Origin: Morinoia aosen
Lineage: Eukaryota; Arthropoda; Malacostraca; Amphipoda; Talitridae
NCBI GenBank assembly: GCA_030386875.1
Contig: CM059562.1
Location: forward strand, 62,308,201 to 62,372,200
Direction: 5' to 3'
DNA: 64,000 nt
Below are positions 36,261 to 61,217 of the stretch, one piece after another; within the stretch, counting starts at the first letter, position 1, and each line of letters opens with the position of its first letter. A program made the position numbers and the translations under genes. Under the pieces are notes generated by a model. It saw only the letters and a list, made by a program, of their open reading frames with translations. It searched no databases and was not told where the DNA came from.

Positions 36261-36266
36261 TCATGC

Positions 36267-37294: not shown

Positions 37295-37513
37295 TTGATA
37301 AATAGAAAGCATGACAAACTTCAACTTTTGAGCAAAAGTTTTGGATTTTTTAACCTCACGGGAGATGTAAATGTATTGGGAATAAAAACTCGGTGTCGTG
37401 TTCACAGCCTAACGCTCAGAAGCCATGAAGAATCTTTGCGCTACTTGAAAGCTCTGCGTTATTTTATCGAGGGCAGTAAGCTGTTTCAGCCCTTGCCTCG
37501 CCAATGCAAGTGA
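37295..37513 (+). CDS. weak candidate exon
   Basis: A plus frame of about 70 codons without a clear ATG; the peptide contains RSHEESLRYLKALRYFIEG and ends near GGCA|GTAAGC, a good donor-like site. No acceptor gives the right frame upstream. It lies about 0.75 kb before the candidate exon at 38256 on the same strand. Confidence 0.2.
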   Translation: MINRKHDKLQLLSKSFGFFNLTGDVNVLGIKTRCRVHSLTLRSHEESLRYLKALRYFIEGSKLFQPLPRQCK

Positions 37514-37799
37514 ACAACAGAGACGAGAGTTCGATGACTGTTCAATCATTTAATGCGATGAGCATCAATTTACAGACCCGACTTTATTTACAAAAGTTAT
37601 CTCCCGATACTTATCAGCATTTTCATTTTCATTGCATCTGTAAATGGTATTGGAGTTATCAAAACTTTGTCTTGCTCATTTGAATGCTTGCTTATACCGG
37701 GCAATTTTTGCTTAATAATGAGGCGGTGATCGTGGTGCAAAATTCAGTGTTACAATAAATTGTAGGCGAAAGATGAAAATTTAATGCCTGAGAATGACA

Positions 37800-37810
37800 C
37801 CCCCCCCCCC
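37800..37810. repeat. poly-C tract
   Basis: Eleven consecutive cytosines in AT-rich DNA. Length may be unreliable in the assembly. Confidence 0.9.
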
Positions 37811-38255
37811 ATTCTGTATTTACCTACCTAGGTAATTTAAACTATTCCATAAAAATTCTGGATGTAGATTTTCATTTCTAGTTTCTAGTAAATATTATGT
37901 GATACAGAAAATTTTTGTTATGAATTCAAATAACAAGCTAAGCGACATGCAAAGTGCTATGTCATTTCTTTTATTTCGACGTACGGAACCTATCAAGCAT
38001 TTCTTAACGCTCGTTCAAATTTCAATCTTTCAATGTAATCTTTAGAATGTACCGATACATCAGGTCACTCGTTCAACATTTTTTCAGAAAATTCTATTTT
38101 ACCATTTTCACTGGTTTTAAACTGCAGTTCTGCTACGTCAATAAAGTACATAAATTTTATTTTCACTTCATTCGGTGAGTAATACTTTATTGAGTAAAGC
38201 ACTGACTCCTCTTTACTCCAGCCTTTTCTCGTTAACGTGTGTTTTATTTTTCAGT

Positions 38256-38580
38256 TTATTCATATTTTAGAATTGCTTCTTGCTCAAAGTTTGTCTCGAT
38301 TTTTATGGAAATGACTCTGGTGCGCTTGAATTCAAGCGGAGACTCGCTACTACAAACAACGGTATCGAGATCTGATGTAGGGCAATACGTTAGGTTTCTG
38401 CATGACCGACCATCGCTGCCGGTTCAGTTTTGTCCGCAGCCCTTGCACTTCCCAGAAAAAATCAACGTTGTATGTCGGTCATCTGCTTCGCGTCGGCTTT
38501 CCCGCCCTAACCTGCAGTCTCAACGAAGCGTCATCAACATTAAACCCTACGGCACATCTTTACATCGTTCAAGCCTTAGC
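38256..38580 (+). CDS. candidate exon, about 108 codons, unidentified protein
   Basis: The acceptor TTTTATTTTTCAG is excellent and a possible donor is GCG|GTATTT; the in-frame TAG falls inside that donor. The open frame spans the whole block, and G+C content rises clearly compared with both flanks. The peptide contains DVGQYVRFLHDRPSLPVQF and a Ser/Arg-rich C-terminal half (SASRRLSRPNLQSQRS), which looks like a disordered or regulatory region. No known domain recognised. A second frame is open for part of the block. Confidence 0.35.
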
Positions 38581-38699
38581 GGTATTTAGAACAGCTTAAC
38601 GCTCGACTTTTTCGGCGTTATTACTACAGAGCCACGTGTTTCTTATAGTCTGTATTTATCAAACTGTTACTCGAAGGAGAACATCCCGATTTGGGTTTA

Positions 38700-41379
38700 C
38701 TTCCTAAGAAATACAATGAGGTGAGACCTTTGCCACTTCAACAGGAGAGAACACGAGAACACTGCCGGAGCGTTAGAGGACTCAATCCCTGAAGCACAGC
38801 GCTGGCAGGCAAAAGCCAAGATCTCCTGGCTGACCCGGAACTTCCTGTACTGACCGTCCGACTTCTCACTTATCCTGCTTCTGGAGGCTTCTTATATAAA
38901 CTAACCTACCAAATCATTTTCAACTGTTATAAAAAATTTCCAGCCAAAAGATTTCTAATAATATTGCGCTTAACAGATAGTTCTTATATTATTGGTATTT
39001 TTCCTTGAATTGAGAGCATGACCCATTGTAGGAAGTCTCCTTTCAATTGATACTATGTCGCTTAACTGACAGTTTCCCTTGTTGGTTGGTTATCCTTGCA
39101 GTAGATCTCCACTCAGCAAAGTTGCCCGGGAAAGTCAGGCCAGATAACAGTGGAGGTCAAGCATTGGTGTTTAACTATCCAGATCCAAGCCCGCCGGCAT
39201 AATGAGTCAGAGTGCGTGAGGAAACTCAAAACTTGTATCTGTTTGTTATCTTTTTCCTTTTCCTATCAATATTTTGTAGGCACATGACCATTTTAATCAA
39301 ATAAAAGTTTGTATCTTTCTTTCTTGTGAAAGTTCATCTTTTTCTACGGTGGGTCAAGTCTGTTTTCGTAATTTCCTCAACACATTTGAATTTGGTGATT
39401 CAGCCAGTTAGTTGATAACGAGTCAAAATCACGTGTACAGTATTCTAACAAACATACACAAATATACACAGGTACACAGGTAAGTTTTCATCACTTTCCT
39501 GGCCTTAAAATCTAATTTTGCACATGGTAGCAGTTTGAGTGTGTTGATGGTGGTCCACTTTTAGATTTAGGTTAAAAATTTACTTTACATTCTCTCATGA
39601 AGTTCTCCCTAGAACTTCTTCTGATCAAGTTTCAAAAAGGATGAAACTAATTTATAAAAAATAAATAAATCCATTTTAGTTTTTAATTAAAATGGTTTTT
39701 TGTTCTTTTAAAATGGGAATCCACACCACACTGTTGACGTAACCGTAACAGATTCCCTTTAAATTATAAATTCTTCAGTTACTGGTGAGGTTCTTCTTCT
39801 GTTTGAACCGTCAGCGCGACTCACTTACCTTTCAGATAAAGTTTGTGTTATCCCGCCAAATGAGTAAACCTCTCGGTTTTCCTTTGATTTAAGAAATGGA
39901 GATAGTAGACAGTGAGAAAACTGGAGAACTTTAAGCCATCGAACATCGGTCGATCGTATTTTTAATGTTGTTCTGCTGTACTCAATTTTGTTTTTAAATA
40001 ACAATTGTATCAAAAATTGCCAATCCATTATCCGAAGCGGTAATTGAATCGACTGCGAGACAACATGAATGTAAGTAAACTTGAGCTGTTGAACAAATTG
40101 CTTCAGAGCAGCCCTAAATTGAACAACTGCAATAGAGCACAATTTACCCGCTTTGTGTAATCATCCCTTCCTAATGATCAGCATAAGCATTTTGAATGAA
40201 AAATTAAGACAATGAAATAAAATGCTCCTCCACGAGGTCAATTCATGCATCCTCGAATAGAAAAGAAGGGTACAAAATGAAGGAAGAGAAGTGAGACGTC
40301 CGTAATCCCGTAGCTTAGCCCTGCACAGTTTCCCCTTGCATCCTTCGCTAATTTTCCCTTGACGGCTCAAAATGAACTCAAGAAGCGGACGCAAATTGGA
40401 TAAACTAAAAACGGTTGTGTTTTCTCAAAGAGCTTCCTCGAGCTTTTACTGGCCAGAGACTATTTAATTATTTTCTGTTCTTGTGTCCAGAGAGCTTATT
40501 ATATTTTGGACATTTTTTCGAGTTCACTTATTATACTAAATAAGTTATTTATCTCAAACTTTTGAAACCAATAATCATGGTAGCTTTCTTGGCAAGCTCA
40601 TTCATCACATAAATATTTTTTTTCAAATACTGAGTCCGTGGACCTTGACTGAATTTCCAAAACGTGACACGATCTTCTCCAACAGCGAATTTTTTCAAAT
40701 CGATTGAAAATGGGAACTCATGCTCTGAGAAAAATGAATAGAACATTTCAGTACTCACAGTCGAATAATTAACAAAGAACTGCAGTCTCTGCCAAGCGAT
40801 GTGTAGAGAATATTTTCGCTAGTACTTTCACAAAATCAAACATCTTTGAAAAACTGCGATAACAAATCATGCGGACACTCATTTAAGCGTTCATGCAGTG
40901 TTTGGCAACAGCAAAGCCCACTATAAATATATGGAATTAGTATGGAAAAATATTCTCAAACAAATTTTCAAGCATAATGTGACATATGGAAAAATTCTCA
41001 ATCAGACTGTAACTTTCCCCGATTGCGCTGTGTGTGTGTGCACCTAATGACCGCCAAAACACTTTTCCTAGCCTCGCTTTTGTACTCGCACGTCAATAAG
41101 AAATTTGAATTTAAAATGTTTTCTTAAGTCGCTAATTTTTATCAAGTGAAATCTCGCTAAAGTTGCGGCTTGTGGCAGCACTAAGCTCGACAGGTGCCTT
41201 GTGTGAGACAGATGAGATTGAATTGAACCGCGCTGTGAGGAGGTGGCTGGCCTCTTGTGCGTTGCAGGGAGTATGTGATCGCCTTTTCTTTGCTATTTCA
41301 ATTTGAGATTGCCATCTCGTTTTCTGTTCATTTTGTTTAGTTATTTATCTTGCATTGTCGCAACCTCTTTTCTACCCAT
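38700..41379. other. left flank of the satellite, no supported gene
   Basis: GC-richer patches at 38730-38870 and 39110-39230 lack a clear frame. Minus-strand frames at 39825-40142, 40161-40394 and 40549-40758 have no convincing splice context. The last 120 bases before the array are pyrimidine-rich with no relation to the monomer. Confidence 0.4.
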
Positions 41380-41589
41380 CTCAAGCTACTTGGTCCTTTT
41401 GACTCTTAAACTACTGGGTCCATGTGACTCTTAAAGTACTGGGTCCATGTGACTCTTAAACTACTCGGTCCTTGTGAGTCTCCAACTACTCGGTCCTTGT
41501 GACTCTTAAACTACTCGGTCCATGTGACGTTTAAGCTACTTGGTCCTTGTGACTCTTAAACTACTCGGTCCTTGTGACTCACAAGCTAC

Positions 41590-42230
41590 CTGGTCCTTTT
41601 GACTCTTAAACTACTTGGTCCTTGTGACTCTTAAACTACTTGGTCCTTGTGACTCTTAAACCACTTGGTCCTTGTGACTCTTAAGCTACTCGGTCCTTGT
41701 GACTCTTAAACTAATGGGTCCTTGTGACTCTTAAACTACTTGGTCCTTGTGACTCTTAAACTACTTGGTCCTTGTGACTCTTAAACTACTTGGTCCTTGT
41801 GACTCTTAAACCACTTGGTCCTTGTGACTCTTAAGCTACTCGGTCCTTGTGACTCTTAAACTACTCGGTCCTTGTGATTCTTAAACTACTTGGTCCTTGT
41901 GACTCTTAAACTACTTGGTCCTTGTGACTCTTAAACTACTTGGTCCTTGTGACTCTTAAACTACTTGGTCCTTGTGACTCTTAAGCTACTCGGTCCTTTT
42001 GACTCTTAAACTACTGGGTCCTTGTGACTCTTAAACTACTTGGTCCTTGTGACTCTTAAACCACTTGGTCCTTGTGACTCTTAAACTACTCGGTCCTTGT
42101 GATTCTTAAACTACTTGGTCCTTGTGACTCTTAAACCACTTGGTCCTTGTGACTCTTAAGCTACTCGGTCCTTTTGACTCTTAAACTACTGGGTCCTTGT
42201 GACTCTTAAACTACTTGGTCCTTGTGACTC
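41590..42230. repeat. higher-order block, copy 1 (partner at 44440-45080)
   Basis: The order of monomer variants in this block recurs 2,850 bp (114 monomers) downstream. Landmarks are the rare CTAATGGG monomer at 41711 and 44561, the GATTC monomers, and AAGCTACTCGG followed by CTTTT. The match ends near 42230, where copy 1 continues with several CTACTTGG monomers and copy 2 with CCACTTGG. Confidence 0.75.
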
Positions 42231-44439
42231 TTAAACTACTTGGTCCTTGTGACTCTTAAACTACTTGGTCCTTGTGACTCTTAAACTACTTGGTCCTTGT
42301 GACTCTTAAACTACTTGGTCCTTGTGACTCTTAAACTACTTGGTCCTTGTGACTCTTAAGCTACTCGGTCCTTTTGACTCTTAAACCACTGAGTCCTTGT
42401 GACTCTTAAACTACTTGGTCCTTGTGACTCTTAAACCACTTGGTCCTTGTGACTCTTAAACTACTCGGTCCTTGTGATTCTTAAACTACTTGGTCCTTGT
42501 GACTCTTAAACCACTTGGTCCTTGTGACTCTTAAGCTACTCGGTCCTTTTGACTCTTAAACTACTGGGTCCTTGTGACTCTTAAACTACTCGGTCCTTGT
42601 GACTCTTAAACTACTGGGTCCTTGTGGCTCTTAAACTACTGGGTCCTTGTGACTCTTAAGCTACTCGGTCCTTTTGACTCTTAAACTACTGGGTCCTTGT
42701 GACTCTTAAACTACTCGGTCCTTGTGACTCTTAAACTACTCGGTCCTTGTGACTCTTAAACTACTCGGTCCTTGTGACTCTTAAACTACTCGGTTCTTGT
42801 GATTCTTAAGCTACTTGGTCCTTGTGACTCTCAAACTACTCGGTCCTTGTGACTCTTAAACTACTCGGTCCTTGTGACTCTTAAACTACTGGGTCCTTGT
42901 GGCTCTTAAACTACTTGGTCCTTGTGACTCTTAAACTACTCGGTCCTTGTGACTCTTAAGCTACTCGGTCCTTGTGACTCTTAAACTACTTGGTCCTTGT
43001 GACTCTTAAGCTACTCGGTCCTTGTGACTCTTAAACTACTTGGTTCTTGTGACTCTTAAACTACTTGGTTCTTGTGACTCTTAAACTACTTGGTTCTTGT
43101 GACTCTTAAACTACTCGGTCCTTGTGACACTTAAACTACTTGGTTCTTGTGACTCTTAAACTACTTGGTTCTTGTGACTCTTAAACTACTCGGTCCTTGT
43201 GACTCTTAAGCTACTCGGTCCTTGTGACTCTTAAACTACTTGGTTCTTGTGACTCTCAAACTACTTGGTTCTTGTGACTCTTAAACCATTCGGTCCTTGT
43301 GACTCTTAAGCTACTCGGTCCTTGTGACTCTTAAACTACTTGGTCCTTGTGACTCTTAAACTACTCGGTCCTTGTGACTCTTAAACTACTTGGTTCATGT
43401 GACTCTTAAACTACTCGGTCCTTGTGACTCTTAAACTACTTGGTCCTTGTGACTCTTAAACTACTGGGTCCTTGTGACTCTTAAACTACTTGGTTCTTGT
43501 GACTCTTAAACTACTTGGTCCTTGTGACTCTTAAACTACTCGGTCCTTGTGACTCTTAAACTACTTGGTCCTTGTGACTCTTAAACTACTCGGTCCTTGT
43601 GACTCTTAAACTACTCGGTCCTTGTGACTCTTAAACTAATGGGTCCTTGTGACTCTTAAACTACTCGGTCCTTGTGACTCTTAAACTACTTGGTCCTTGT
43701 GACTCTTAAGCTACTTGGTCCTTGTGACTCTTAAGCAACTTGGTTCTTGTGACTCTTAAACTACTTGGTCCTTGTGACTCTTAAACTACTTGGTCATTGT
43801 GACTCTTAAACTACTTGGTCCTTGTGACTCTTAAGCTACTTGGTTCTTGTGACTCTTAAACTACTTGGTCCTTGTGACTCTTAAACTACTTGGTCCTTGT
43901 GACTCTTAAACTACTCGGTCCTTGTGACTCTTAAACTACTTGGTCCTTGTGACTCTTAAGCTACTTGGTTCTTGTGACTCTTAAACTACTCGGTCCTTGT
44001 GACTCTTAAACTACTTGGTCCTTGTGACTCTTAAACTACTTGGTCCTTGTGACTCTTAAACTACTTGGTCCTTGTGACTCTTAAGCTACTTGGTTCTTGT
44101 GACTCTTAAACTACTCGGTCCTTGTGACTCTTAAACTACTTGGTCCTTGTGACTCTTAAACTACTTGGTCCTTGTGACTCTTAAACTACTTGGTCCTTGT
44201 GACTCTTAAACTACTTGGTCCTTGTGACTCTTAAACTACTCGGTCCTTGTGACTCTTAAACTACTTGGTCCTTGTGACTCTTAAGCTACTTGGTTCTTGT
44301 GACTCTTAAACTACTCGGTCCTTGTGACTCTTAAACTACTCGGTCCTTGTGACTCTTAAACTACTTGGTTCTTGTGACTCTTAAACTACTTGGTCCTTGT
44401 GACTCTTAAACTACTCGGTCCTTGTGACTCTTAAACTAC

Positions 44440-45080
44440 TTGGTCCTTTTGACTCTTAAACTACTTGGACCTTGTGACTCTTAAACTACTTGGTCCTTGT
44501 GACTCTTAAACCACTTGGTCCTTGTGACTCTTAAGCTACTCGGTCCTTGTCACTCTTAAACTAATGGGTCCTTGTGACTCTTAAACTACTTGGTCCTTGT
44601 GACTCTTAAACTACTTGGTCCTTGTGACTCTTAAACTACTTGGTCCTTGTGACTCTTAAACCACTTGGTCCTTGTGACTCTTAAGCTACTCGGTCCTTGT
44701 GACTCTTAAACTACTCGGTCCTTGTGATTCTTAAACTACTTGGTCCTTGTGACTCTTAAACTACTTGGTCCTTGTGACTCTTAAACTACTTGGTCCTTGT
44801 GACTCTTAAACTACTTGGTCCTTGTGACTCTTAAGCTACTCGGTCCTTTTGACTCTTAAACTACTGGGTCCTTGTGACTCTTAAACTACTTGGTCCTTGT
44901 GACTCTTAAACCACTTGGTCCTTGTGACTCTTAAACTACTCGGTCCTTGTGATTCTTAAACTACTTGGTCCTTGTGACTCTTAAACCACTTGGTCCTTGT
45001 GACTCTTAAGCTACTCGGTCCTTTTGACTCTTAAACTACTGGGTCCTTGTGACTCTTAAACTACTTGGTCCTTGTGACTC
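44440..45080. repeat. higher-order block, copy 2 (partner at 41590-42230)
   Basis: This block repeats the variant order of the upstream copy, with single-base differences such as GTCACTC for GTGACTC near 44550. The 2,850-bp spacing is an exact multiple of 25. Confidence 0.75.
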
Positions 45081-45099
45081 TTAAACCACTTGGTCCTTG

Positions 45100-46110
45100 T
45101 GACTCTTAAGCTACTCGGTCCTTGTGACTCTTAAACTAATGGGTCCTTGTGACTCTTAAACTACTTGGTCCTTGTGACTCTTAAACTACTTGGTCCTTGT
45201 GACTCTTGAACTACTTGGTCCTTGTGACTCTTAAACCACTTGGTCCTTGTGACTCTTAAGCTACTCGGTCCTTGTGACTCTTAAACTACTCGGTCCTTGT
45301 GATTCTTAAACTACTGGGTCCTTGTGACTCTTAAACTACTTGGTCCTTGTGACTCTTAAACTACTTGGTCCTTGTGACTCTTAAACTACTTGGTCCTTGT
45401 GACTCTTAAGCTACTCGGTCCTTTTGACTCTTAAACTACTGGGTCCTTGTGACTCTTAAACTACTTGGTCCTTGTGACTCTTAAACTACTTGGTCCTTGT
45501 GACTCTTAAACTACTTGGTCCTTGTGACTCTTAAACTACTCGGTCCTTGTGACTCTTAAACTACTTGGTCCTTGTGACTCTTAAACTACTTGGTCCTTGT
45601 GACTCTTAAACTACTTGGTCCTTGTGACTCTTAAGCTACTCGGTCCTTTTGACTCTTAAACTACTGGGTCCTTGTGACTCTTAAACTACTTGGTCCTTGT
45701 GACTCTTAAACCACTTGGTCCTTGTGACTCTTAAGCTACTCGGTCCTTTTGACTCTTAAACTACTGGGTCCTTGTGACTCTTAAACTACTTGGTCCTTGT
45801 GACTCTTAAACCACTTGGTCCTTGTGACTCTTAAGCTACTCGGTCCTTGTGACTCTTAAACTAATGGGTCCTTGTGACTCTTAAACTACTTGGTCCTTGT
45901 GACTCTTAAACTACTTGGTCCTTGTGACTCTTGAACTACTTGGTCCTTGTGACTCTTAAACCACTTGGTCCTTGTGACTCTTAAGCTACTCGGTCCTTGT
46001 GACTCTTAAACTACTCGGTCCTTGTGATTCTTAAACTACTTGGTCCTTGTGACTCTTAAACTACTTGGTCCTTGTGACTCTTAAACTACTTGGTCCTTGT
46101 GACTCTTAAA
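45100..46110. repeat. 725-bp higher-order duplication inside the array
   Basis: The rare CTTGAAC variant occurs at 45206 and 45931 and the CTAATGGG variant at 45136 and 45861, both 725 bp (29 monomers) apart. The neighbouring variants agree in order, showing a duplicated block. Confidence 0.7.
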
Positions 46111-46537
46111 CTACTTGGTCCTTGTGACTCTTAAGCTACTCGGTCCTTTTGACTCTTAAACTACTGGGTCCTTGTGACTCTTAAACTACTTGGTCCTTGT
46201 GACTCTTAAACTACTTGGTCCTTGTGACTCTTAAACTACTTGGTCCTTGTGACTCTTAAGCTACTCGGTCCTTGTGACTCTTAAACTACTCGGTCCTTGT
46301 GATTCTTAAACTACTTGGTCCTTGTGACTCTTAAACTACTTGGTCCTTGTGACTCTTAAACTACTTGGTCCTTGTGACTCTTAAACCACTTGGTCCTTGT
46401 GACTCTTAAACTACTCGGTCCTTGTGATTCTGAAACTACTTGGTCCTTGTGACTCTTAAACCACTTGGTCCTTGTGACTCTTAAGCTACTCGGTCCTTTT
46501 GACTCTTAAACTACTGGGTCCTTGTGACTCTTAAACT

Positions 46538-49460
46538 ACTTGGTTCTTGTGACTCTTAAACCACTTGGTCCTTGTGACTCTTAAGCTACTCGGTCCTTTT
46601 GACTCTTAAACTACTTGGTCCTTGTGATTCTTAAACTACTTGGTCCTTGTGACTCTTAAACTACTTGGTTCTTGTGACTCTTAAACCACTTGGTCCTTGT
46701 GACTCTTAAACTACTTGGTTCTTGTGACTCTTAAACCACTTGGTCCTTGTGACTCTTAAGCTACTCGGTCCTTTTGACTCTTAAACTACTTGGTCCTTGT
46801 GATTCTTAAACTACTTGGTCCTTGTGATTCTTAAACTACTTGGTCCTTGTGACTCTTAAACTACTTGGTCCTTGTGACTCTTAAACTACTTGGTCCTTGT
46901 GATTCTTAAACTACTTGGTCCTTGTGACTCTTAAACTACTTGGTCCTTGTGACTCTTAAACTACTTGGTTCTTGTGACTCTTAAACCACTTGGTCCTTGT
47001 GACTCTTAAGCTACTCGGTCCTTTTGACTCTTAAACTACTTGGTCCTTGTGATTCTTAAACTACTTGGTCCTTGTGACTCTTAAACCACTTGGTCCTTGT
47101 GACTCTTAAACTACTTGGTTCTTGTGACTCTTAAACTACTTGGTCCTTGTGACTCTTAAACTACTCGGTCCTTGTGACTCTTAAACTACTCGGTCCTTGT
47201 GACTCTTAAACTACTCGGTCCTTGTGACTCTTAAACTACTGGGTCCTTGTGACTCTTAAACTACTCGGTCCTTGTGACTCTTAAACTACTCGGTCCTTGT
47301 GACTCTTAAGCTACTCGGTCCTTGTGACTCTTAAACTACTTGGTCCTTGTGACTCTTAAACTACTTGGTCCTTGTGACTCTTAAACTACTTGGTCCTTGT
47401 GACTCTTAAACTACTTGGTCCTTGTGACTCTTAAGCTACTCGGTCCTTGTGACTCTTAAACTACTTGGTCCTTGTGACTCTTAAACTACTTGGTCCTTGT
47501 GACTCTTAAGCTACTCGGTCCTTGTGACTCTTAAACTACTTGGTTCTTGTGACTCTTAAACTACTTGGTTCTTGTGACTCTTAAACTACTCGGTCCTTGT
47601 GACTCTTAAGCTACTCGGTCCTTGTGACTCTTAAACTACTTGGTTCTTGTGACTCTTAAACTACTTGGTTCTTGTGACTCTTAAACTACTCGGTCCTTGT
47701 GACTCTTAAGCTACTCGGTCCTTGTGACTCTTAAACTACTTGGTCCTTGTGACTCTTAAACTACTTGGTCCTTGTGACTCTTAAACTACTTGGTTCATGT
47801 GACTCTTAAACTACTTGGTCCTTGTGACTCTTAAACTACTTGGTCCTTTTGACTCTTAAACTACTGGGTCCTTGTGACTCTTAAACTACTTGGTTCTTGT
47901 GACTCTTAAACTACTTGGTCCTTGTGACTCTTAAACTACTCGGTCCTTGTGACTCTTAAACTACTTGGTCCTTGTGACTCTTAAACTACTCGGTCCTTGA
48001 GACTCTTAAACTACTCGGTCCTTGTGACTCTTAAACTAATGGGTCCGTGTGACTCTTAAACTACTCGGTCCTTGTGACTCTTAAACTACTTGATCCTTGT
48101 GACTCTTAAGCTACTTGGTCCTTGTGACTCTTAAGCTACTTGGTCCTTGTGACTCTTAAGCTACTTGGTTCTTGTGACTTTTAAACTACTTGGTCCTTGT
48201 GACTCTTAAGCTACTTGGTTCTTGTGACTCTTAAACTACTTGGTCCTTGTGACTCCTAAACTACTTGGTCCTTGTGACTCTTAAACTACTCGGTCCTTGT
48301 GACTCTTAAACTACTTGGTCCTTGTGACTCTTAAGCTACTTGGTTCTTGTGACTCTTAAACTACTCGGTCCTTGTGACTCTTAAACTACTTGGTCCTTGT
48401 GACTCTTAAACTACTTGGTCCTTGTGACTCTTAAACTACTTGGTCCTTGTGACTCTTAAGCTACTTGGTTCTTGTGACTCTTAAACTACTCGGTCCTTGT
48501 GACTCCTAAACTACTTGGTCCTTGTGACTCTTAAACTACTTGGTCCTTGTGACTCTTAAACTACTTGGTCCTTGTGACTCTTAAACTACTTGGTCCTTGT
48601 GACTCTTAAACTACTCGGTCCTTGTGACTCCTAAACTACTTGGTCCTTGTGACTCTTAAGCTACTTGGTTCTTGTGACTCTTAAACTACTCGGTCCTTGT
48701 GACTCTTAAACTACTCGGTCCTTGTGACTCTTAAACTACTTGGTTCTTGTGACTCTTAAACTACTTGGTCCTTGTGACTCTTAAACTACTCGGTCCTTGT
48801 GACTCTTAAACTACTTGGTCCTTGTGACTCTTAAACTACTTGGTTCATGTGACTCTTAAACTACTTGGTTCTTGTGACTTAAACTACTCGGTCCTTGTGA
48901 CTCTTAAACTAATTGGTCCTTGTGACTCCTAAACTACTTGGTTCATGTGACTCTTAAACTACTTGGTCCTTGTGACTCTTAAACTACTTGGTCCTTGTGA
49001 CTCTTAAACTACTTGGTTCATGTGACTCTTAAACTACTTGGTCCTTGTGACTCTTAAACTACTTGGTTCTTGTGACTCTTAAACTACTTGGTCCTTGTGA
49101 CTCTTAAACTACTCGGTCCTTGTGACTCTTAAACTACTTGGTCCTTGTGACTCTTAAACTACTCGGTCCTTGTGACTCTTAAACTACTCGGTCCTTGTGA
49201 CTCTTAAACTACTTGGTCCTTGTGACTCTTAAACTACTCGGTCCTTGTGACTCTTAAACTACTCGGTCCTTGTGACTCTTAAACTACTCTGTCCTTGTGA
49301 CTCTTAAACTACTCGGTCCTTGTGACTCTTAAACTACTTGGTCCTTGTGACTCTTAAACTACCCGGTCCTTGTGACTCTTAAACTACTCGGTCCTTGTGA
49401 CTCTTAAACTACTCGGTCCTTGTGACTCTTAAACTACTCGGTCCTTGTGACTCTTAAACT
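46538..49460. repeat. 2,923-bp higher-order repeat, copy 1
   Basis: 117 monomers, one of which lacks two bases (GTGACTTAAAC at 48874), giving 2,923 bp. The same variant order follows immediately in copy 2. Shared landmarks at exactly this spacing include GGTTCAT (47792 and 50715), TTGAGACTC (47997 and 50920) and the two-base deletion (48874 and 51797). Only a handful of single-base differences were seen by eye. Confidence 0.9.
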
Positions 49461-52383
49461 ACTTGGTTCTTGTGACTCTTAAACCACTTGGTCCTTGTGA
49501 CTCTTAAGCTACTCGGTTCTTTTGACTCTTAAACTACTTGGTCCTTGTGATTCTTAAACTACTTGGTCCTTGTGACTCTTAAACTACTTGGTTCTTGTGA
49601 CTCTTAAACCACTTGGTCCTTGTGACTCTTAAACTACTTGGTTCTTGTGACTCTTAAACCACTTGGTCCTTGTGACTCTTAAGCTACTCGGTCCTTTTGA
49701 CTCTTAAACTACTTGGTCCTTGTGATTCTTAAACTACTTGGTCCTTGTGATTCTTAAACTACTTGGTCCTTGTGACTCTTAAACTACTTGGTCCTTGTGA
49801 CTCTTAAACTACTTGGTCCTTGTGATTCTTAAACTACTTGGTCCTTGTGACTCTTAAACTACTTGGTCCTTGTGACTCTTAAACTACTTGGTTCTTGTGA
49901 CTCTTAAACCACTTGGTCCTTGTGACTCTTAAGCTACTCGGTCCTTTTGACTCTTAAACTACTTGGTCCTTGTGATTCTTAAACTACTTGGTCCTTGTGA
50001 CTCTTAAACCACTTGGTCCTTGTGACTCTTAAACTACTTGGTTCTTGTGACTCTTAAACTACTTGGTCCTTGTGACTCTTAAACTACTCGGTCCTTGTGA
50101 CTCTTAAACTACTCGGTCCTTGTGACTCTTAAACTACTCGGTCCTTGTGACTCTTAAACTACTGGGTCCTTGTGACTCTTAAACTACTCGGTCCTTGTGA
50201 CTCTTAAACTACTCGGTCCTTGTGACTCTTAAGCTACTCGGTCCTTGTGACTCTTAAACTACTTGGTCCTTGTGACTCTTAAACTACTTGGTCCTTGTGA
50301 CTCTTAAACTACTTGGTCCTTGTGACTCTTAAACTACTTGGTCCTTGTGACTCTTAAGCTACTCGGTCCTTGTGACTCTTAAACTACTTGGTCCTTGTGA
50401 CTCTTAAACTACTTGGTCCTTGTGACTCTTAAGCTACTCGGTCCTTGTGACTCTTAAACTACTTGGTTCTTGTGACTCTTAAACTACTTGGTTCTTGTGA
50501 CTCTTAAACTACTCGGTCCTTGTGACTCTTAAGCTACTCGGTCCTTGTGACTCTTAAACTACTTGGTTCTTGTGACTCTTAAACTACTTGGTTCTTGTGA
50601 CTCTTAAACTACTCGGTCCTTGTGACTCTTAAGCTACTCGGTCCTTGTGACTCTTAAACTACTTGGTCCTTGTGACTCTTAAACTACTTGGTCCTTGTGA
50701 CTCTTAAACTACTTGGTTCATGTGACTCTTAAACTACTTGGTCCTTGTGACTCTTAAACTACTTGGTCCTTTTGACTCTTAAACTACTGGGTCCTTGTGA
50801 CTCTTAAACTACTTGGTTCTTGTGACTCTTAAACTACTTGGTCCTTGTGACTCTTAAACTACTCGGTCCTTGTGACTCTTAAACTACTTGGTCCTTGTGA
50901 CTCTTAAACTACTCGGTCCTTGAGACTCTTAAACTACTCGGTCCTTGTGACTCTTAAACTAATGGGTCCTTGTGACTCTTAAACTACTCGGTCCTTGTGA
51001 CTCTTAAACTACTTGATCCTTGTGACTCTTAAGCTACTTGGTCCTTGTGACTCTTAAGCTACTTGGTCCTTGTGACTCTTAAGCTACTTGGTTCTTGTGA
51101 CTTTTAAACTACTTGGTCCTTGTGACTCTTAAGCTACTTGGTTCTTGTGACTCTTAAACTACTTGGTCCTTGTGACTCCTAAACTACTTGGTCCTTGTGA
51201 CTCTTAAACTACTCGGTCCTTGTGACTCTTAAACTACTTGGTCCTTGTGACTCTTAAGCTACTTGGTTCTTGTGACTCTTAAACTACTCGGTCCTTGTGA
51301 CTCTTAAACTACTTGGTCCTTGTGACTCTTAAACTACTTGGTCCTTGTGACTCTTAAACTACTTGGTCCTTGTGACTCTTAAGCTACTTGGTTCTTGTGA
51401 CTCTTAAACTACTCGGTCCTTGTGACTCTTAAACTACTTGGTCCTTGTGACTCTTAAACTACTTGGTCCTTGTGACTCTTAAACTACTTGGTCCTTGTGA
51501 CTCTTAAACTACTTGGTCCTTGTGACTCTTAAACTACTCGGTCCTTGTGACTCCTAAACTACTTGGTCCTTGTGACTCTTAAGCTACTTGGTTCTTGTGA
51601 CTCTTAAACTACTCGGTCCTTGTGACTCTTAAACTACTCGGTCCTTGTGACTCTTAAACTACTTGGTTCTTGTGACTCTTAAACTACTTGGTCCTTGTGA
51701 CTCTTAAACTACTCGGTCCTTGTGACTCTTAAACTACTTGGTCCTTGTGACTCTTAAATTACTTGGTTCATGTGACTCTTAAACTACTTGGTTCTTGTGA
51801 CTTAAACTACTCGGTCCTTGTGACTCTTAAACTAATTGGTCCTTGTGACTCCTAAACTACTTGGTTCATGTGACTCTTAAACTACTTGGTCCTTGTGACT
51901 CTTAAACTACTTGGTCCTTGTGACTCTTAAACTACTTGGTTCATGTGACTCTTAAACTACTTGGTCCTTGTGACTCTTAAACTACTTGGTTCTTGTGACT
52001 CTTAAACTACTTGGTCCTTGTGACTCTTAAACTACTCGGTCCTTGTGACTCTTAAACTACTTGGTCCTTGTGACTCTTAAACTACTCGGTCCTTGTGACT
52101 CTTAAACTACTCGGTCCTTGTGACTCTTAAACTACTTGGTCCTTGTGACTCTTAAACTACTCGGTCCTTGTGACTCTTAAACTACTCGGTCCTTGTGACT
52201 CTTAAACTACTCGGTCCTTGTGACTCTTAAACTACTCGGTCCTTGTGACTCTTAAACTACTTGGTCCTTGTGACTCTTAAACTACCCGGTCCTTGTGACT
52301 CTTAAACTACTCGGTCCTTGTGACTCTTAAACTACTCGGTCCTTGTGACTCTTAAACTACTCGGTCCTTGTGACTCTTAAACT
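49461..52383. repeat. 2,923-bp higher-order repeat, copy 2
   Basis: Tandem duplicate of the block at 46538-49460. Differences include GGTTCTTTT against GGTCCTTTT near 49509, AAATTACTTGG near 51757, and CTAATGGGTCCTTG against CTAATGGGTCCGTG. The array continues afterwards with unrelated variant order. Confidence 0.9.
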
Positions 52384-55164
52384 ACTTGGTTCTTGTGACT
52401 CTTAAACTACTTGGTCCTTGTGACTCTTAAACAACTCGGTCCTTGTGACTCTTAAACTACTTGGTTCTTGTGACTCTTAAACTACTTGGTCCTTGTGACT
52501 CTTAAACTACTTGGTCCTTGTGACTCTTAAACTACTCGGTCCTTGTGACTCTTAAACTACTTGGTTCTTGTGACTCTTAAACTACTTGGTCCTTGTGACT
52601 CTTAAACTACTCGGTCCTTGTGACTCTTAAACTACTTGGTTCTTGTGACTCTTAAACTACTTGGTTCTTGTGACTCTTAAGCTACTTGGTCCTTGTGACT
52701 CTTAAGCTACTCGGTCCTTGTGACTCCTAAACTACTTGGTTCTTGTAACTCTTAAACTACTTGGTTCTTGTGACTCTTAAACTACTCGGTTCTTGTGACT
52801 CTCAAACTACTTGGTTCTTGTGACTCTTAAACTACTCGGTCCTTGTGACTCTTAAACTACTTGGTTCTTGTGACTCTTAAACTACTTGGTTCTTGTGACT
52901 CTTAAACTACTTGGTCCTTGTGACTCTTAAGCTACTCGGTCCTTTTGACTCTTAAACTACTTGGTCCTTGTGACTCTTAAACTACTGGGTCTTTGTGACT
53001 CTTAAACTACTCGGTCCTTGTGACTCTTAAACTACTCGGTCCTTGTGACTCTTAAGCTACTTGGTCCTTGTGACTCATAAGCTACTTGGTCCTTGTGACT
53101 CTTAAACTACTGGGTCCTTGTGACTCTTAAACTACTCGGTCCTTGTGACTCTTAAGCTACTTGGTCCTTGTGACTCTTAAACTACTGGGTCCTTGTGACT
53201 CTTAAACTACTTGGTTCTTGTGACTCTTAAACTACTTGGTCCTTGTGACTCTTAAGCTACTCGGTCCTTTTGACTCTTAAACTACTTGGTCCTTGTGACT
53301 CTTAAACTACTGGGTCCTTGTGACTCTTAAACTACTCGGTCCTTGTGACTCTTAAACTACTCAGTCCTTGTGACTCTTAAGCTACTTGGTCCTTGTGACT
53401 CATAAGCTACTTGGTCCTTGTGACTCTTAAACTACTGGGTCCTTGTGACTCTTAAACTACTCGGTCCTTGTGACTCTTAAACTACTTGGTCCTTGTGACT
53501 CTTAAACTACTGGGTCCTTGTGACTCTTAAACTACTCGGTCCTTGTGACTCTTAAACTACTTTGTCCTTGTGACTCTTAAACTACTCGGTCCTTGTGACT
53601 CTTAAACTACTTGGTTCTTGTGACTCTTAAACTACTTGGTTCTTGTGACTCTTAAACTACTTGGTTCTTGTGACTCTTAAACTACTTGGTCCTTGTGACT
53701 CTTAAGCTACTCGGTCCTTTTGACTCTTAAACTACTTGGTCCTTGTGACTCTTAAACTACTGGGTCCTTGTGACTCTTAAACTACTCGGTCCTTGTGACT
53801 CTTAAACTACTCGGTCCTTGTGACTCTTAAACTACTTGGTCCTTGTGACTCATAAGCTACTTGGTCCTTGTGACTCTTAAACTACTGGGTCCTTGTGACT
53901 CTTAAACTACTCGGTCCTTGTGACTCTTAAACTACTTGGTCCTTGTGACTCTTAAACTACTGGGTCCTTGTGACTCTTAAACTACTTGGTCTTTGTGACT
54001 CTTAAACTACTCGGTCCTTGTGATTCTTAAGCTACTTGGTTCTTGTGACTCTTAAGCTACTTGGTCCTTGTGACTCTTAAACTACTTGGTCCTTGTGACT
54101 CTCAAACTACTTGGTTCTTGTGACTCTTAAACTACTTGGTCCTTGTGATTCTTAAACTACTTGGTCCTTGTGACTCTTAAACTACTCGGTCCTTGTGACT
54201 CTTAAACTACTGGGTCCTTGTGACTTTTAAACTACTGGGTCCTTGTGACTCTTAAACTACTGGGTCCTTGTGACTCTTAAACTACTTGGTCCTTGTGACT
54301 CTTAAACTACTCGGTCCTTGTGACTCTTAAACTACTGGGTCCTTGTGACTCTTAAACTACTTGGTCCTTGTGACTCTTAAACTACTCGGTCCTTGTGACT
54401 CTTAAACTACTTGGTCCTTGTGACTCTTAAACTACTTGGTTCTTGTGACTCTTAAACTACTTGGTCCTTGTGATTCTTAAACTACTTGGTCCTTGTGACT
54501 CTTAAACTACTCGGTCCTTGTGACTCTTAAACTACTTGGTCCTTGTGATTCTTAAACTACTGGGTCCTTGTGGCTCTTAAACTACTTGGTCCTTGTGACT
54601 CTTAAATTACTTGGTCCTTGTGACTCTTAAACTACTTGGCCCTTGGGATTCTTAAACTACTTGGTCCTTGTGGCTCTTAAACTACTGGGTCCTTGTGACT
54701 TTTAAGCTACTGGGTCCTTTTGACTCTTAAACTACTCGGTCCTTGTGACTCTCAAACTACTCGGTCCTTGTGACTCTTAAACTACTCGGTCCTTGTGACT
54801 CTCAAACTACTCGGTCCTTGTGACTCTTAAACTACTTGGTCCTTTTGACTCTTAAACTACTGGGTCCTTGTGACTCTTAAACTACTGGGTCCTTTTGACT
54901 CTTAAACTACTTGGTCCTTGTGCTCTTAAACTACTGGGTCCTTGTGACTCTTAAACTACTCGGTCCTTGTGACTCTCAAACTTCTCGGTCCTTGTCACTC
55001 TTAAACTACTCGGTCCTTGTGACGCTTAAACTACTTGGTCCATGTGACTCATAAGCTACTCGGTCCTTGTGACTCTTGAACTACTCGTTAATTGTGACTC
55101 TTAAAATACTCGGTCTTTGTGACTCTAAAACTATTTTCACTATCATACTACCCGTGGCTCTACG

Positions 55165-55677
55165 GTGCCCTCTTCAAATCATAAGAGACTCAGGCACTAT
55201 TTCAAGGTGAGCAGGTGGTCATATGAGATTTCTTTTATCGCGAAACGTGAAGACGTTCTATTTTCTGTTGTTGCTCTCCCTCAGAATCCTTTGGCGAGCG
55301 TGATCTGGATGTTATGCTCCTTTAAGAGGCCACTTTGTTCGGTTTACCAAGCCTAACTTTTCTCCAGCGTGTGTTTCATCTCCGAAGTTAATTTCTTGGA
55401 CTCTGAGTAGTGCCTAGGTTCTTACGTGAATAATAATGAAACTTTCTAGAATGAGATCTAAGTGTTACATGATCTGACGCGGTGGTACCTCATTTAATCA
55501 CTAATTCATTCCTCCTTACTAAATTGCAGTTCTGTGTTGGGCTGGGAGGTGCCGGATCTATAATGGCCTCCCGTTCACTTTGTTGAACGTCAAGAGGTAA
55601 CAAGATACGCCCTAAAACACGTTGGGTCGTTTGGCACAACGAAGACCATTTAATTATCTGCATTCGGTAAGCATTCA
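55165..55677. other. unique sequence between satellite and fold-back element
   Basis: A 63-codon plus frame (55165-55356) has a GTGAGC donor-like site (CAAG|GTGAGC at 55207) early in it but no acceptor. Nothing can be called. Confidence 0.4.
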
Positions 55678-56205
55678 CGAGATGACTATAATCGATTTTG
55701 CACTTTTCTGGGCCTAAACATAGTTAATCAGATCGAAAATAACACGTTTTCTTCAATGCACTTTCCGTCTGAAATGAGTATTTTGCGAGTTATAGCGGTA
55801 AATTAGTTACCGCAACTCAAGTGTTAGAAGCGGGAAGAAATTCATCGAGCGCGGGTATGGCAACACTGCATTGGAGTCACGCTTCCAACGCGCTCGTCAT
55901 CACAGACGAAACTAAACCTACCGCTATAACTCGTCAAATACTCATTTGACGCAAAAGTGTATAAAAGAAAAGTAGTTCATTTTGAAGTTATTACCATGAT
56001 TCAAGCAACGAAAATTGGAAAATCGATTGGTAGCTGTTTATTCGATTGCATTCGTCATCAAAGACGAAAATTAAAATACCACTATAACTCGTAAAATACT
56101 CATTTCAGACGGAAAGTGCATGGAGGAAAAGTTGTTTATTTACATCTAATTAGCAATGTTCAGACACCAAAAAGTGGGAAATCGATTATGGTCATCTCCT
56201 GGACA
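55678..56205. mobile_element. fold-back (inverted-repeat) element with three arm copies
   Basis: The reverse complement of 55678-55800 matches 56078-56205 over about 120 bp, including TATAACTCG, AAATACTCATTTCAGACGG, AAAGTGCAT and a terminal ATCGATTATRGTCATCTC. A third, more divergent copy in the same orientation as the right arm lies at about 55918-56040, preceded by a shared TCGTCATCAxAGACGAAA. Terminal inverted repeats plus internal direct repeats and no coding frame fit a MITE or fold-back transposon. No target-site duplication was established. Confidence 0.65.
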
Positions 56206-58458
56206 TTTACCCTGCATTCTCCTAATTGGGAGTTTATCGTTGACAATTCATCGAGTTGAAAAAAAGTGTGAATTATTAAAAGTTCGAGTTCTTCTGTGCG
56301 TCATTTCCTGTGTTCCGGTTAAAAAACCCTACACGTCTTCTGTGAATCACAGAACGGAGTCAGCAATGATTTGGATTGCCGGATCGGGTTCTCATACTCT
56401 CAGTGGCGTTACTCAAGCGAAAGTCTAATTATCTAGATACTTTAGATTAAACATATCCATTGGTACTAACATAACATTGTTCTTTGATGGAGTTATTTCC
56501 ATGATTACAATCAACCCATAAAATTAAAGCTCTTGCCTCCTAAATCTGGTGAAAATAATTCATAATCTAATTCCCACATAACTGAGCATCTGCGATACTT
56601 GCCAACTGAGGCTTTAAAAAAAAAGGGGTGAACTGATTTCACGAACCTATATCAAGAGAAAAGCGTATAAATATAATCGTTTAAATGACGTAACTCTTTA
56701 TTCCAAGCATTAAGCAATGATATTATTTATCATCGTTTACCTTAGAGATACAAATAGTATATTTATTCTTGCATTGTTCGCAGCGACAAGGTAACAGAGT
56801 GTACCTTTGTGCATCCGAGGCTTTGCAGCCAAGGCTTACAAGTGGTGCATCATGAAGGGAACCACGAACAAACTGTGGCGAACACCTAAAATTGTGGAAG
56901 AACATCATCGCCAAACTATTACTTATTGAAACATGTTTAAAAATGCAGGTTTTTCTTCAGCAACAGTATAAGAAAAGAAACATAGGTTGTCTCAAAACTT
57001 CGACACCAACAACTATACGTGCTTGCTTCCCAGGACCGAACAACACCAAACTTGCCAGAGCGTACCTCAGTAACTTGTCTTGTTAATCCACATCTTGGTG
57101 CGCTTCTATTACGCTTGTGCTTATTTTATGGTAGTCTTCTTTTTCTGGATATGTTAGACGACTCTTCTTTACATTTAATCAGCAGTTATGTTTACTATTT
57201 TCGGTTTCTGAGAGAAAAGATGTAGATACTATCTTTTTACACTCGAAGAAATTTTCACTGTGTTGGATGAAAATTAAAGGACTTGTTACGAGATCTTACT
57301 TCTCATTTAACGTTAAAGTCAAAGGCAAAATAAGCACTCTGCGTGCGTATGAATTTTTAATATTTTCTGTGTTTTATTGTGTATGCAATTAATCACTCCG
57401 ATGAGTTTACCTAATCTTTGGTAGAAGTATGCAAGCTTCTTTTAGGATTTACTCACTTCTGAAAGTCCAATGTTTGCTTCAGTAACTGACATTGAAATTT
57501 TTACCAACGTGGCTGCTGCGTTTTCGAGACTGTGACATACCATTTCGATCCCGTTTAGTTTTCAGTGTCTTATCAGTCTGTTCTTTGTAGACGACGGCAT
57601 CGTGGTCTGTGGTCGACACCTAAAGGAGCTCGTTCTGTAGCTGATGCCTGATCGCTGTTTGTCAAACTTACTCCTCCGTATTTCGGTCGTGCAACTAACT
57701 GGAGTGAATAATCTTCTGATATTATTGTCAGGTGGTTCTGGGGATGGGAACTAAATTCGATCGGTGAATGGGTCCTATGTTCGAGAAAACTCGATATAGC
57801 CAATTATATTTGTAACACTATTCTATGAGCGTGAAATCTTATTTTAATATTAAAGTATTAAAACGTACTGCTCGCACAATCTTGAGTAGTCTGGAAGTGT
57901 GAAGGGTGGTCAAAACTCTAACGTAGGTTCAGAAAGGCAATCCAGTGCAGCCTTTGGTCTGAACATGAGATTTAATCGAAGCTTTTGTTCTGGTTGCGAA
58001 TAAATGGAGACGGTCTAATGCCTTCGTACATTTTCTAAATGAATTTGAGCTGCGGGACAAAACGGCTGTAAGAAGAAAACCAAATTTTTTTAAGTGATCA
58101 AGTGCAAAAGTAAAATCTGTAATTTTACTGTCCGCCCACAGAATAACGAGTGAGATGTTCACAGAAGTTTCATGTTCATAACGACCACTATGAGAACTAA
58201 CGATGTACTTCATATTTTGCTTTTTATGAGAAAGAGCAGACCAACACATGTTTCACCAAAGTGTGTTTTAGCTTCGGTTTCAATTTCAACTTTTTGGCTT
58301 CCTATTTTGAATATTTTTAAAGCTTCTCTACAAGTGATTTAAAATTATGAAAAATTGTTTCAGTTTAATTAATATTAAGTCAACACTCTTTAGTTTTAAA
58401 CCTAACTAGTATTGCAAGCTTTCCTTGCTCTGCAAAATATAAAACAAAAATACACATT
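56206..58458. other. AT-rich stretch, no supported gene
   Basis: Plus frames at 56156-56428 and 57019-57225 and minus frames at 57573-57803 and 57929-58249 lack splice support or known motifs. A short A-rich run lies at about 56617. Confidence 0.4.
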
Positions 58459-58610
58459 AAAACATTGGTTACAAAGTAGCCCCCAGTGACACTGAATTCA
58501 TCCACTTCCTTACTCCGTTGAAACATCTGGTTTAATAACAAATTTGACAGAGATCTAGTCTTTCGGTATGAGAAGCCTTCAGATCACAGATCGAGTTATC
58601 GAAAGAAGTT
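58459..58610 (+). repeat. dispersed 152-bp repeat, copy 1
   Basis: This segment matches 61248-61401 at roughly 90 percent by eye. Shared strings include TAAAACATTGGTTACAAA, GTAGCCCCC, ACTCCGTTGAAACA, GATCTAGTCTTTC and AGAAGCCTTCAGATCACAGA. No open frame of note. It is probably a fragment of a longer mobile element. Confidence 0.8.
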
Positions 58611-60009
58611 TTTCCAAGACTGACGCGTTCTCGAGATGATGGATTGGACGGCTAGCTTCGGGACATTTTCTTTTCGTCAAGATGCCATCAGCTTTTAAGG
58701 ACACGGAAAATAGCCGCAGAGAGTGAAAAATGAAGAATATAATTTTCAAAAAAACTGAACTTCTGATCTCATCCCTGAAAGCCGGAAACTTTCGGTTGTA
58801 AGATATGAGGAAAAACTATGCCTCAGAAAAAAATACCGTCTAGGCGTTTACTCGACCTTTAAAATGGGTATGAATTTGTACAATAGAGCATTTAATAAAT
58901 CCGACCGCTCTTGTCTTTTACAGAAGGAAGAGAGTTTTACATATATTTCTAACATTATCCGGACCATCTCCATTTATCCTATGAACAACACAGTATAACT
59001 GAAAGATTAAATAATTATTTGTAATTGTTTTCGACACCTTATAATAAATCATCGCAGTGAATAAGATTTCCCAATTCAGATAATGTTTCCAAAAGGTTTC
59101 AAATGAGCATTTCAGTGTCATTATTTACATTTCGCAGTCTCTCCAATGAATTTTCCGGTATCGTGTTCGAATTCTTCCTGACAATTTTCTGTAGAATTAT
59201 TGTTCTCATTGTTCTTTAACTTCTGCAAGGAAACTTTTCACTATGTTTAAATAAGTTTGGTGTATGCATTTCGGTCTTCTCTGTTCGTTCTTGTGCAAGT
59301 GAGGTTTTCATTTTCATCAGCTTTTTTGTTTAATTTCTTTAGTCTACAAACTTTGAATTAGAATTTTTTGTAGTGAAAGATGCGCTCTCATTTAAAGGGA
59401 GATGTGGCTGGCATTTCAACACCACAAGCTGTCGACAACTTACGGAATTTTGTGGTAGCTGTCCAGAAGTTTCTTTTCCTGAAGTTCAGGAAATAGTGAA
59501 TTCTCATACAGTATGTATAATATTGCACAACCAAATGTTTACTGTCACATCCTTATAATAAAATTAATTCTTTATTTTAAGCCGAGTTCAGACCTTTTGG
59601 AATTAAAAGTCTGTTCTCCTGTTAGTTGGTCAGTATGGATGTACGAAAAACATTTTTAATTATTATTTATTTTTATTTAAAATGTGCGAAACGATTATAT
59701 TTCTTCATTTTAATCACTTCTTCATAACTTGGTTCAGAGTACAAGTTAAATGTAGAAACACTGACAAATTTCCAACCAAAGAGCCGTTATAATAACTTGG
59801 ATAATATTTCGCATATTCCAATACTCGTTATTGCTATCGTCAGTCATAAATGCAGAACCGTTAAATTTTTGAAAATAACGTTGGTAAATTGTGGTATCAA
59901 ATACCATTTTACTAATCTTGTTTTTCTATTTTATTCTAACTTATTTCACGTTATACTCTAACTCACTGAAGATTGCTCTCATAAAGTTTATTTGCACGTC
60001 TTAGGATTA
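58611..60009. other. AT-rich stretch, no supported gene
   Basis: No exon, RNA gene or element recognised between the first dispersed repeat and the GC-richer block at 60010. The minus frame at 58918-59121 and the plus frame at 59373-59558 are uncalled. Confidence 0.4.
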
Positions 60010-60888: not shown

Positions 60889-60910
60889 ACTTTACCTAAA
60901 GGTAAAGTAA
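60889..60910. other. perfect short hairpin
   Basis: TACTTTACC and GGTAAAGTA form a perfect 9-bp stem around a 4-base loop. No T-run follows it, so it is not called as a terminator. Confidence 0.5.
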
Positions 60911-61197: not shown

Positions 61198-61217
61198 ATT
61201 ATTATTATTATTATTAT
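61198..61217. repeat. (ATT)n microsatellite
   Basis: About six to seven consecutive ATT units, located 30 bases before the second copy of the dispersed 152-bp repeat. Confidence 0.9.

What the first reader, a model, noticed from the sequence alone, without database searches (positions are those of the whole stretch)
41380..55134. Large homogeneous 25-bp satellite without any interruption
About 550 head-to-tail monomers span 13.75 kb with no transposon insertion, no orientation switch and almost no length change (one two-base deletion, copied once, plus a few edge defects). A monomer this short in such a long, clean array points to continuous homogenisation. It is the most unusual object of the window and may be a centromeric, subtelomeric or heterochromatic satellite.
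Basis: seen in the sequence. Interest (0 to 1): 0.7.

Follow-up and report, generated by a model that had tools for sequence, protein, structure and literature searches.

The report
Solo retrotransposon LTR with inflated minisatellite
The 13.75-kb array is not a free-standing satellite but the internal 25-bp repeat of one leftover end (solo LTR) of a BEL/Pao retrotransposon family, most likely grown from about 20 repeats to about 550, which makes it a readable example of a transposon seeding satellite DNA.

Summary
The array is real: about 550 head-to-tail 25-bp units at 41380-55134. In the host assembly (1.99 Gb, 29 contigs), all 27 copies examined (25 loci) have the array between the same ~285-bp left and ~650-bp right sequences. 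The unit starts TG, ends CA, and has perfect 4-bp target-site duplications at 16 of 21 loci. Two full-length copies carry it twice, 99.7-99.8% identical, around a 5.5-kb interior with Pao peptidase, DUF1759 and DUF5641 matches. The window therefore holds a 15.2-kb solo LTR (41095-56333, TSD cgtc) of a BEL/Pao element with 547 monomers, against 19 and 23 in the full-length copies. Length changed after integration: a duplicate of this same insertion 2.6 Mb away has 287 monomers plus an insert. One growth step is visible: a 2,923-bp block copied once with 5 differences, which explains the 'copied' two-base deletion. Copies are scattered over 25 of 29 contigs (my count); centromere positions are unknown. 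Satellite birth from transposons is known; this is a new member.

The parts
41091..41094 (+). 5' target-site duplication, cgtc
   Evidence: the same 4 bp follow the 3' end
41095..41379 (+). left (5') part of the solo LTR; the usual terminal TG reads AA in this copy and in its C7 duplicate
   Evidence: dispersed repeat, mostly 86-91% to the other listed copies, matches starting at 41097 in most
41380..55134 (+). 25-bp minisatellite, about 550 monomers, consensus TCTTAAACTACTTGGTCCTTGTGAC
46562..49484 (+). block of 117 monomers less two bases (2,923 bp), first copy of a tandem block duplication
49485..52407 (+). second copy of that block, 5 mismatches in 2,923 bp
55135..55665 (+). right (3') part of the solo LTR, first segment
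   Evidence: dispersed repeat, 277 first-look candidates of which 40 were scored
55666..56211 (.). nested insertion with imperfect terminal inverted repeats; CTGCATTC at 55658-55665 and again at 56212-56219; shared with the C7 duplicate, not seen in the other copies whose right part was read across this point
56212..56333 (+). right (3') part of the solo LTR, last segment, ending ...AACCCTACA (its first bases are the second copy of CTGCATTC)
56334..56337 (+). 3' target-site duplication, cgtc

Best explanation
The feature is a solo LTR (15.2 kb, 41095-56333) of a BEL/Pao-type LTR retrotransposon family. The family's LTRs carry an internal 25-bp minisatellite, about 20 units in the near-identical LTR pairs of two full-length copies. 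SHOWN: shared LTR ends, 4-bp target-site duplications, full-length copies with paired LTRs and BEL/Pao domains, a different array length in the duplicated copy of this same insertion, and one block duplication in the window's array. INFERRED: (1) a full-length element inserted at cgtc; (2) recombination between its two LTRs removed the interior; (3) the array started near the size seen in full-length copies and grew by unequal exchange or replication slippage of multi-monomer blocks, with variants amplified locally; (4) it has no host function and is passively maintained.
For: Left and right LTR parts on either side of the array in 27 of 27 copies examined. Of the 16 loci fetched through array hits, 8 were not in the listed rows of the left-flank search, and all 8 have both parts. 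TG...CA ends; perfect 4-bp TSD at 16 of 21 loci with both ends, 3 of 4 bases at three more; 4 matches in 420 comparisons between different loci, the number that the two duplicated pairs alone would give. Counting each duplicated pair once: 14 of 19. Full-length copies L037 and L038: LTR pairs of 1472 and 1544 bp differing at 5 and 3 sites, 19/19 and 23/23 monomers, TSDs cggc and ctat, interior about 5.5 kb. Pfam: Peptidase_A17 3.9e-37 and 1e-37, DUF1759 8.3e-16 and 5.9e-16, DUF5641 2e-10 and 1.8e-10. The C7 duplicate has the same TSD and nested insertion and flanks about 98% identical, but 287 against 547 monomers. Shared blocks at lags of 117, 114 and 29 monomers. Substitutions concentrate in few classes (172, 80 and 79 of 560) against a maximum averaging 14.7 and never above 19 in 200 trials of independent uniform mutation. 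Among 17 copies (the window and 16 others not found by the left-flank search; duplicates pruned) array size rises with terminal branch length, rho 0.60, P 0.011.
Against: This copy's 5' end reads AA, not TG. Two of 21 loci show no TSD and three an imperfect one. No primer-binding site starting TGG directly after the 5' LTR and no clear polypurine tract were seen, by eye, in two copies. RVT_1, rve and Integrase_H2C2 scored below Pfam's curated cut-offs. Length against age is not shown for the family: rho is 0.23, P 0.28 when the six copies found by the left flank (2 to 24 monomers) are included, and an earlier run, spoilt because the duplicate shortened the window's branch, gave 0.41, P 0.11. 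The window/duplicate comparison shows change, but contraction in the duplicate could explain part of it; the array length at insertion is unknown. Reads were not available, so the exact length is unverified.
Confidence: 0.93

Rival explanations
1. A free-standing centromeric, subtelomeric or heterochromatic satellite.
For: Long, clean arrays here and on C18 (547 and 564 monomers). No protein-coding gene recognised nearby (10 of 161 window frames of 58 aa or more scanned, none matched Pfam). In Lathyrus, arrays inside dispersed retrotransposons expanded mainly in primary constrictions (PMC7004042 summary), so a large array could still lie near a centromere.
Against: 27 of 27 copies examined lie between LTR halves, mostly with TSDs. 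The listed copies are scattered over 25 of 29 contigs, e.g. C12 at 1.8, 2.9, 14.4, 23.2, 46.1, 70.2, 74.5, 76.6 and 99.1 Mb of 102.8 Mb (listed rows only, no statistical test of spread).
Confidence: 0.03
2. A DNA transposon or Helitron-type element with central tandem repeats (DINE-1, pearl, terMITE kind; names partly recalled) rather than an LTR.
For: Conserved left and right segments around a tandem array is the described anatomy of Helitron/Helentron elements (passages of PMC12628747 and PMC8268682).
Against: 4-bp TSDs, TG...CA ends, and two copies with the unit repeated at both ends of an interior with BEL/Pao domains.
Confidence: 0.01
3. The array exists but its assembled length is wrong: the 2,923-bp near-identical block, or the total, is an assembly artefact.
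For: The block pair differs at 5 of 2,923 sites; the two largest arrays, 13.8 and 14.7 kb, are near a common long-read length (recalled, not tested), which could cap or distort them.
Against: 66-69 monomer types make most of the array placeable by reads; other loci hold intermediate sizes, e.g. 117, 172 and 181 monomers.
Confidence: 0.12
4. The monomer is kept by selection, for example as a promoter-side enhancer or host-factor site in the mobile element, so that old arrays keep the same consensus.
For: Array consensus in the window and C18 is identical to that of the full-length copies although the LTR flanks differ by 9-14%; in the L038 LTR the array (about 297-881) lies upstream of AATAAA at 1191 and 1197 and of a TATA string at 982.
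Against: A majority consensus of a large array changes slowly anyway; site 13 T/C varies within most copies; several short arrays have a changed consensus (L011, L012, L013, L016); no expression or binding data; a TATA string also lies at 301.
Confidence: 0.2

Closest known systems
Mouse MaLR LTR minisatellites Ms6-hm and Hm-2 (Kelly 1994; seen only as a table row and a reference in PMC9659126)
   Same: Minisatellites arising inside LTRs of a dispersed retroelement
   Different: Different element; their array sizes were not seen; here the repeat was present in all 27 LTR copies examined and reaches about 14 kb
[quoted passage not shown] seen only as a cited title; the paper is not held)
   Same: Same superfamily (BEL/Pao) and tandem repeats within the LTR
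   Different: There the repeats are assigned to R; here the array probably lies in U3 (inferred from AATAAA and TATA strings); the title says nothing about satellite-size arrays
Ogre-derived satellites of Lathyrus sativus (PMC7004042, summary and passages)
   Same: Short arrays inside dispersed LTR retrotransposons that occasionally expand
   Different: Plant Ty3/gypsy, repeats in the 3' untranslated region, expansion mainly in primary constrictions; here in the LTR of a BEL/Pao element, place relative to centromeres unknown
CgiSat11 of Crassostrea gigas, labelled LTR/BEL in the satellitome table (PMC8268682, passages)
   Same: Satellite linked to a BEL element in an invertebrate
   Different: 892-bp monomer instead of 25 bp; how it relates to the element was not seen

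Membership tests
BEL/Pao LTR retrotransposon (for the family) | Pao-type protease and other BEL/Pao-specific domains | tested here: met
   Peptidase_A17 3.9e-37 / 1e-37, DUF1759, DUF5641 above cut-offs in two copies; that the two DUFs are BEL/Pao hallmarks is recalled
BEL/Pao LTR retrotransposon (for the family) | Reverse transcriptase and integrase | tested here: inconclusive
   RVT_1, rve, Integrase_H2C2 at E 6e-6 to 4e-4, below curated cut-offs; no RT tree was built
BEL/Pao LTR retrotransposon (for the family) | Paired near-identical LTRs, TG...CA, short TSD | tested here: met
   L037 99.66%, L038 99.8%; TSD 4 bp in both
BEL/Pao LTR retrotransposon (for the family) | Primer-binding site and polypurine tract | tested here: inconclusive
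   No TGG directly after the LTR and no clear purine tract in two copies, inspected by eye
Solo LTR (window copy) | One LTR bounded on both sides by the same TSD, no interior | tested here: met
   cgtc at 41091-41094 and 56334-56337; the terminal TG is AA in this copy
Satellite DNA | Long contiguous array of similar monomers | tested here: met
   13.75 kb, 4.1% mean divergence from consensus
Satellite DNA | Centromeric, subtelomeric or heterochromatic location | tested here: inconclusive
   Copies scattered over 25 of 29 contigs; this one at 62.3 of 90.1 Mb, so not subtelomeric; centromeres and chromatin not known
Satellite DNA | Arrays independent of a mobile element | tested here: not met
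   27 of 27 copies examined lie within the LTR; an exhaustive genome count was not obtained
Helitron or MITE with central tandem repeats | Helitron ends without TSD, or terminal inverted repeats without gag-pol | tested here: not met
   4-bp TSDs and LTR pairs around BEL/Pao domains

The most novel reading that the evidence does not exclude
A BEL/Pao family acts as a genome-wide satellite factory: each insertion plants a ready-made 25-bp array of about 20 units inside its LTR, and once the element is reduced to a solo LTR the array escapes the length control imposed by reverse transcription and grows by block duplication to 14 kb or more. This gives LTRs over 15 kb and a graded series from mobile seed to satellite within one genome.
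Probability: 0.4. Interest if true: 0.55.

Novelty: new member of a known kind. Interest (0 to 1): 0.42.

Why it matters
It gives a readable intermediate in satellite birth: the same mobile seed at many positions, from 2 to 564 monomers among 27 copies examined, with one insertion duplicated so that two histories of the same array can be compared. It also warns that long tandem arrays in assemblies should be checked for element boundaries before they are called centromeric or heterochromatic satellites.

Tried and rejected
Rfam at gathering thresholds (0 matches), tRNA search (0) and Pfam on 10 of 161 window frames of 58 aa or more (0 matches) gave no gene context. A degenerate monomer pattern had no match in viral contigs (the tool notes that records of the own genome may be left out), and six fragments of the monomer were found in 4 papers, none on repeats by title. 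No good monomer match lies elsewhere in the window (best 18 of 25 over all rotations, no shuffle control). A boundary reading as MITE or Helitron was dropped. Whole-genome counts of the monomer and of coding copies could not be had: those requests did not complete. The first test of array size against age was flawed because the duplicate shortened the window's branch; it was redone with duplicates pruned. Contig-end stretches were partly N and showed no telomere motif to my eye, so the taxon stays unknown. A third pair of arrays about 7 kb apart (C21 near 113.07 Mb) was not fetched.

Full report
What is there. The array is at 41380-55134 as described: period 25, 550.4 copies, no interruption; 551 units in my own phasing, 546 of exactly 25 bp. 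The consensus is TCTTAAACTACTTGGTCCTTGTGAC; 167 units match it exactly and mean divergence is 4.1%. The 'two-base deletion copied once' is explained by a block duplication: 46562-49484 recurs as 49485-52407 with 5 mismatches in 2,923 bp (117 monomers less two bases). Other near-identical blocks lie at lags of 114 and 29 monomers.

It is not alone. The window is C7:62308201-62372200 of a 1.99-Gb assembly of 29 contigs. A 301-bp piece of the array gave 264 matches there (39 of 204 first-look candidates scored); the rows printed, a part of these, fall at 31 places on 20 contigs by my count. The 300 bp left of the array are a dispersed repeat (40 of 284 candidates scored, mostly 86-91% identical from window 41097 on), and so are the 366 bp to its right (40 of 277 scored, 87% or more). 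The listed rows of the three searches together touch 25 of the 29 contigs. All these counts are lower bounds.

It is an internal part of a mobile element. I fetched 20 stretches covering 16 further loci found by array hits, and used six shorter loci brought in by the left-flank search. Eight of the 16 were not among the listed left-flank hits, so they are a fair test; all eight have the left part on one side of the array and the right part on the other. Over 27 copies at 25 loci, including the window and two full-length elements, the order left part - 25-bp array - right part holds in 27. Aligned ends mostly read TGTAAGAAATTT... and ...AACCCTACA. Of 23 loci examined for target-site duplications, 2 lacked one end; of the 21 left, 16 have perfect 4-bp duplications, 3 match at 3 of 4 bases, 2 at none (14, 3 and 2 of 19 if each duplicated pair counts once). 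Between different loci 4 of 420 comparisons match, as many as the two duplicated pairs alone would give. The window copy has cgtc on both sides; its terminal TG reads AA.

The element is BEL/Pao. One search showed three places with two arrays about 7 kb apart; two were fetched (L037, L038). Both hold the unit twice, 1472 bp at 99.66% and 1544 bp at 99.8% identity (5 and 3 differences), with 4-bp duplications cggc and ctat, around a 5.5-kb interior. Their open frames match Peptidase_A17 (Pao retrotransposon peptidase, 3.9e-37 and 1e-37), DUF1759 and DUF5641 above cut-off, and RVT_1, rve and Integrase_H2C2 below cut-off. A primer-binding site and polypurine tract were not recognised by eye.

Array size varies enormously. 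Over the 27 LTR copies, recognised monomers run from 2 to 564; the window (547) and C18 (564) are the largest, the full-length copies have 19 and 23. The choice of loci was biased: those found by array hits have 24 to 564, those found by the left flank 2 to 24. With duplicates pruned, array size rises with terminal branch length among the 17 copies not found by the left flank (rho 0.60, P 0.011), but not among all 23 (rho 0.23, P 0.28); a first, flawed run gave 0.41, P 0.11. 'Older means longer' is therefore suggested at best; old copies may also lose their arrays.

Change after integration is shown by a natural duplicate. An inverted copy of this region lies 2.6 Mb away on C7. It matches the window at about 98% in the main flank alignments (31197-41379 and 55135-60432; shorter pieces 95.8-98.4%), shares the TSD and the nested insertion, and reaches to about window 9364 in the 5-kb stretch tested there (95%). 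Its array is 8.0 kb with 287 monomers plus about 828 bp of foreign DNA at a TTAA with CCCGCGCAC...GTGCGCGGG ends, piggyBac-like by recall. So one insertion now has two very different arrays; part of the difference could be contraction in the duplicate. The 2,923-bp block pair differs by 0.17% against about 2% for the flanks, so that block duplication is younger than the segmental duplication unless conversion has erased differences. If the duplicate is really a misplaced haplotype, the comparison becomes an allelic one.

How the array turns over. In the window, 560 substitutions from consensus fall into 42 classes, the largest 172, 80 and 79; independent uniform mutation gave a maximum of 14.7 on average and never above 19 in 200 trials. 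Site 13 T/C varies within most copies, including one of the two full-length ones, and is probably ancestral; the window and its duplicate share variants (13G, 17T) that C18 nearly lacks, so amplification is local. Monomer similarity hardly depends on distance in the window: 0.935 at lag 1 and 0.936 at lag 160 against a shuffled mean of 0.933 (highest of 100 shuffles 0.936), with a slight excess at lags 3-10 (0.938-0.939). Other arrays do show local similarity: the duplicate 0.939 at lag 1 against 0.927 shuffled, C18 0.937 against 0.933, L021, L029 and L020 more strongly (length changes may add to this). Unequal exchange or slippage of multi-monomer blocks is the likely mechanism; solo-LTR formation itself could also change array length.

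Comparison. Satellites from repeats inside transposons are established (PMC12628747, passages; PMC9659126, passages and part of Table 1). [quoted passage not shown] the paper is not held). CgiSat11 of the oyster, 892 bp, is labelled LTR/BEL (PMC8268682, passages). Six full-text searches on these themes (one search listed 25 of 41 papers and 12 of 14) listed no paper whose title or abstract start describes a BEL/Pao LTR minisatellite grown to this size; that is a limited look at open papers. I call it a new member of a known kind.

Verdict. Observation confirmed; interpretation corrected from a satellite of unknown, possibly centromeric, nature to the inflated internal minisatellite of a BEL/Pao solo LTR. 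The exact length awaits reads, and the place relative to centromeres and heterochromatin is open. On checking, the facts mended (the age test, the distance test, the centromere row) did not call for changed odds.

Noticed in passing
window about 9364-64000 versus C7 about 64973000-65023700: Large inverted segmental duplication (95-98% where compared; not all of it was fetched) 2.6 Mb away on the same contig, or a misplaced haplotype; the window copy has extra stretches near 60433-61633 and 62234-63372.
   Followed up: partly
window 55666-56219: Nested 546-bp insertion in the LTR with imperfect inverted ends and an 8-bp duplication CTGCATTC, hAT-like by recall.
   Followed up: partly
L017 (array of the C7 duplicate, about position 6576 of that array): About 828 bp of foreign DNA at TTAA inside the satellite, with CCCGCGCAC inverted ends; the monomer itself contains TTAA, a ready target.
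   Followed up: partly
L037 1-834 and 9270-9900; L038 1-430 and 9590-9898: Both full-length copies examined sit in or beside other tandem repeats (119-bp, and 21-bp and 70-bp units); possible insertion bias, two cases only.
   Followed up: no
L022 and L023 (C9 near 72.83 and 70.55 Mb): Same TSD and flanking letters at two places on C9: another duplication carrying a solo LTR, here with equal arrays (82 and 82 monomers).
   Followed up: no
window about 58450 and 61250; 63063-63119: Two copies of a repeat (aaacattggttacaaa...) close together right of the LTR, seen by eye; and a GGGGGACCCC-rich short tandem stretch.
   Followed up: no
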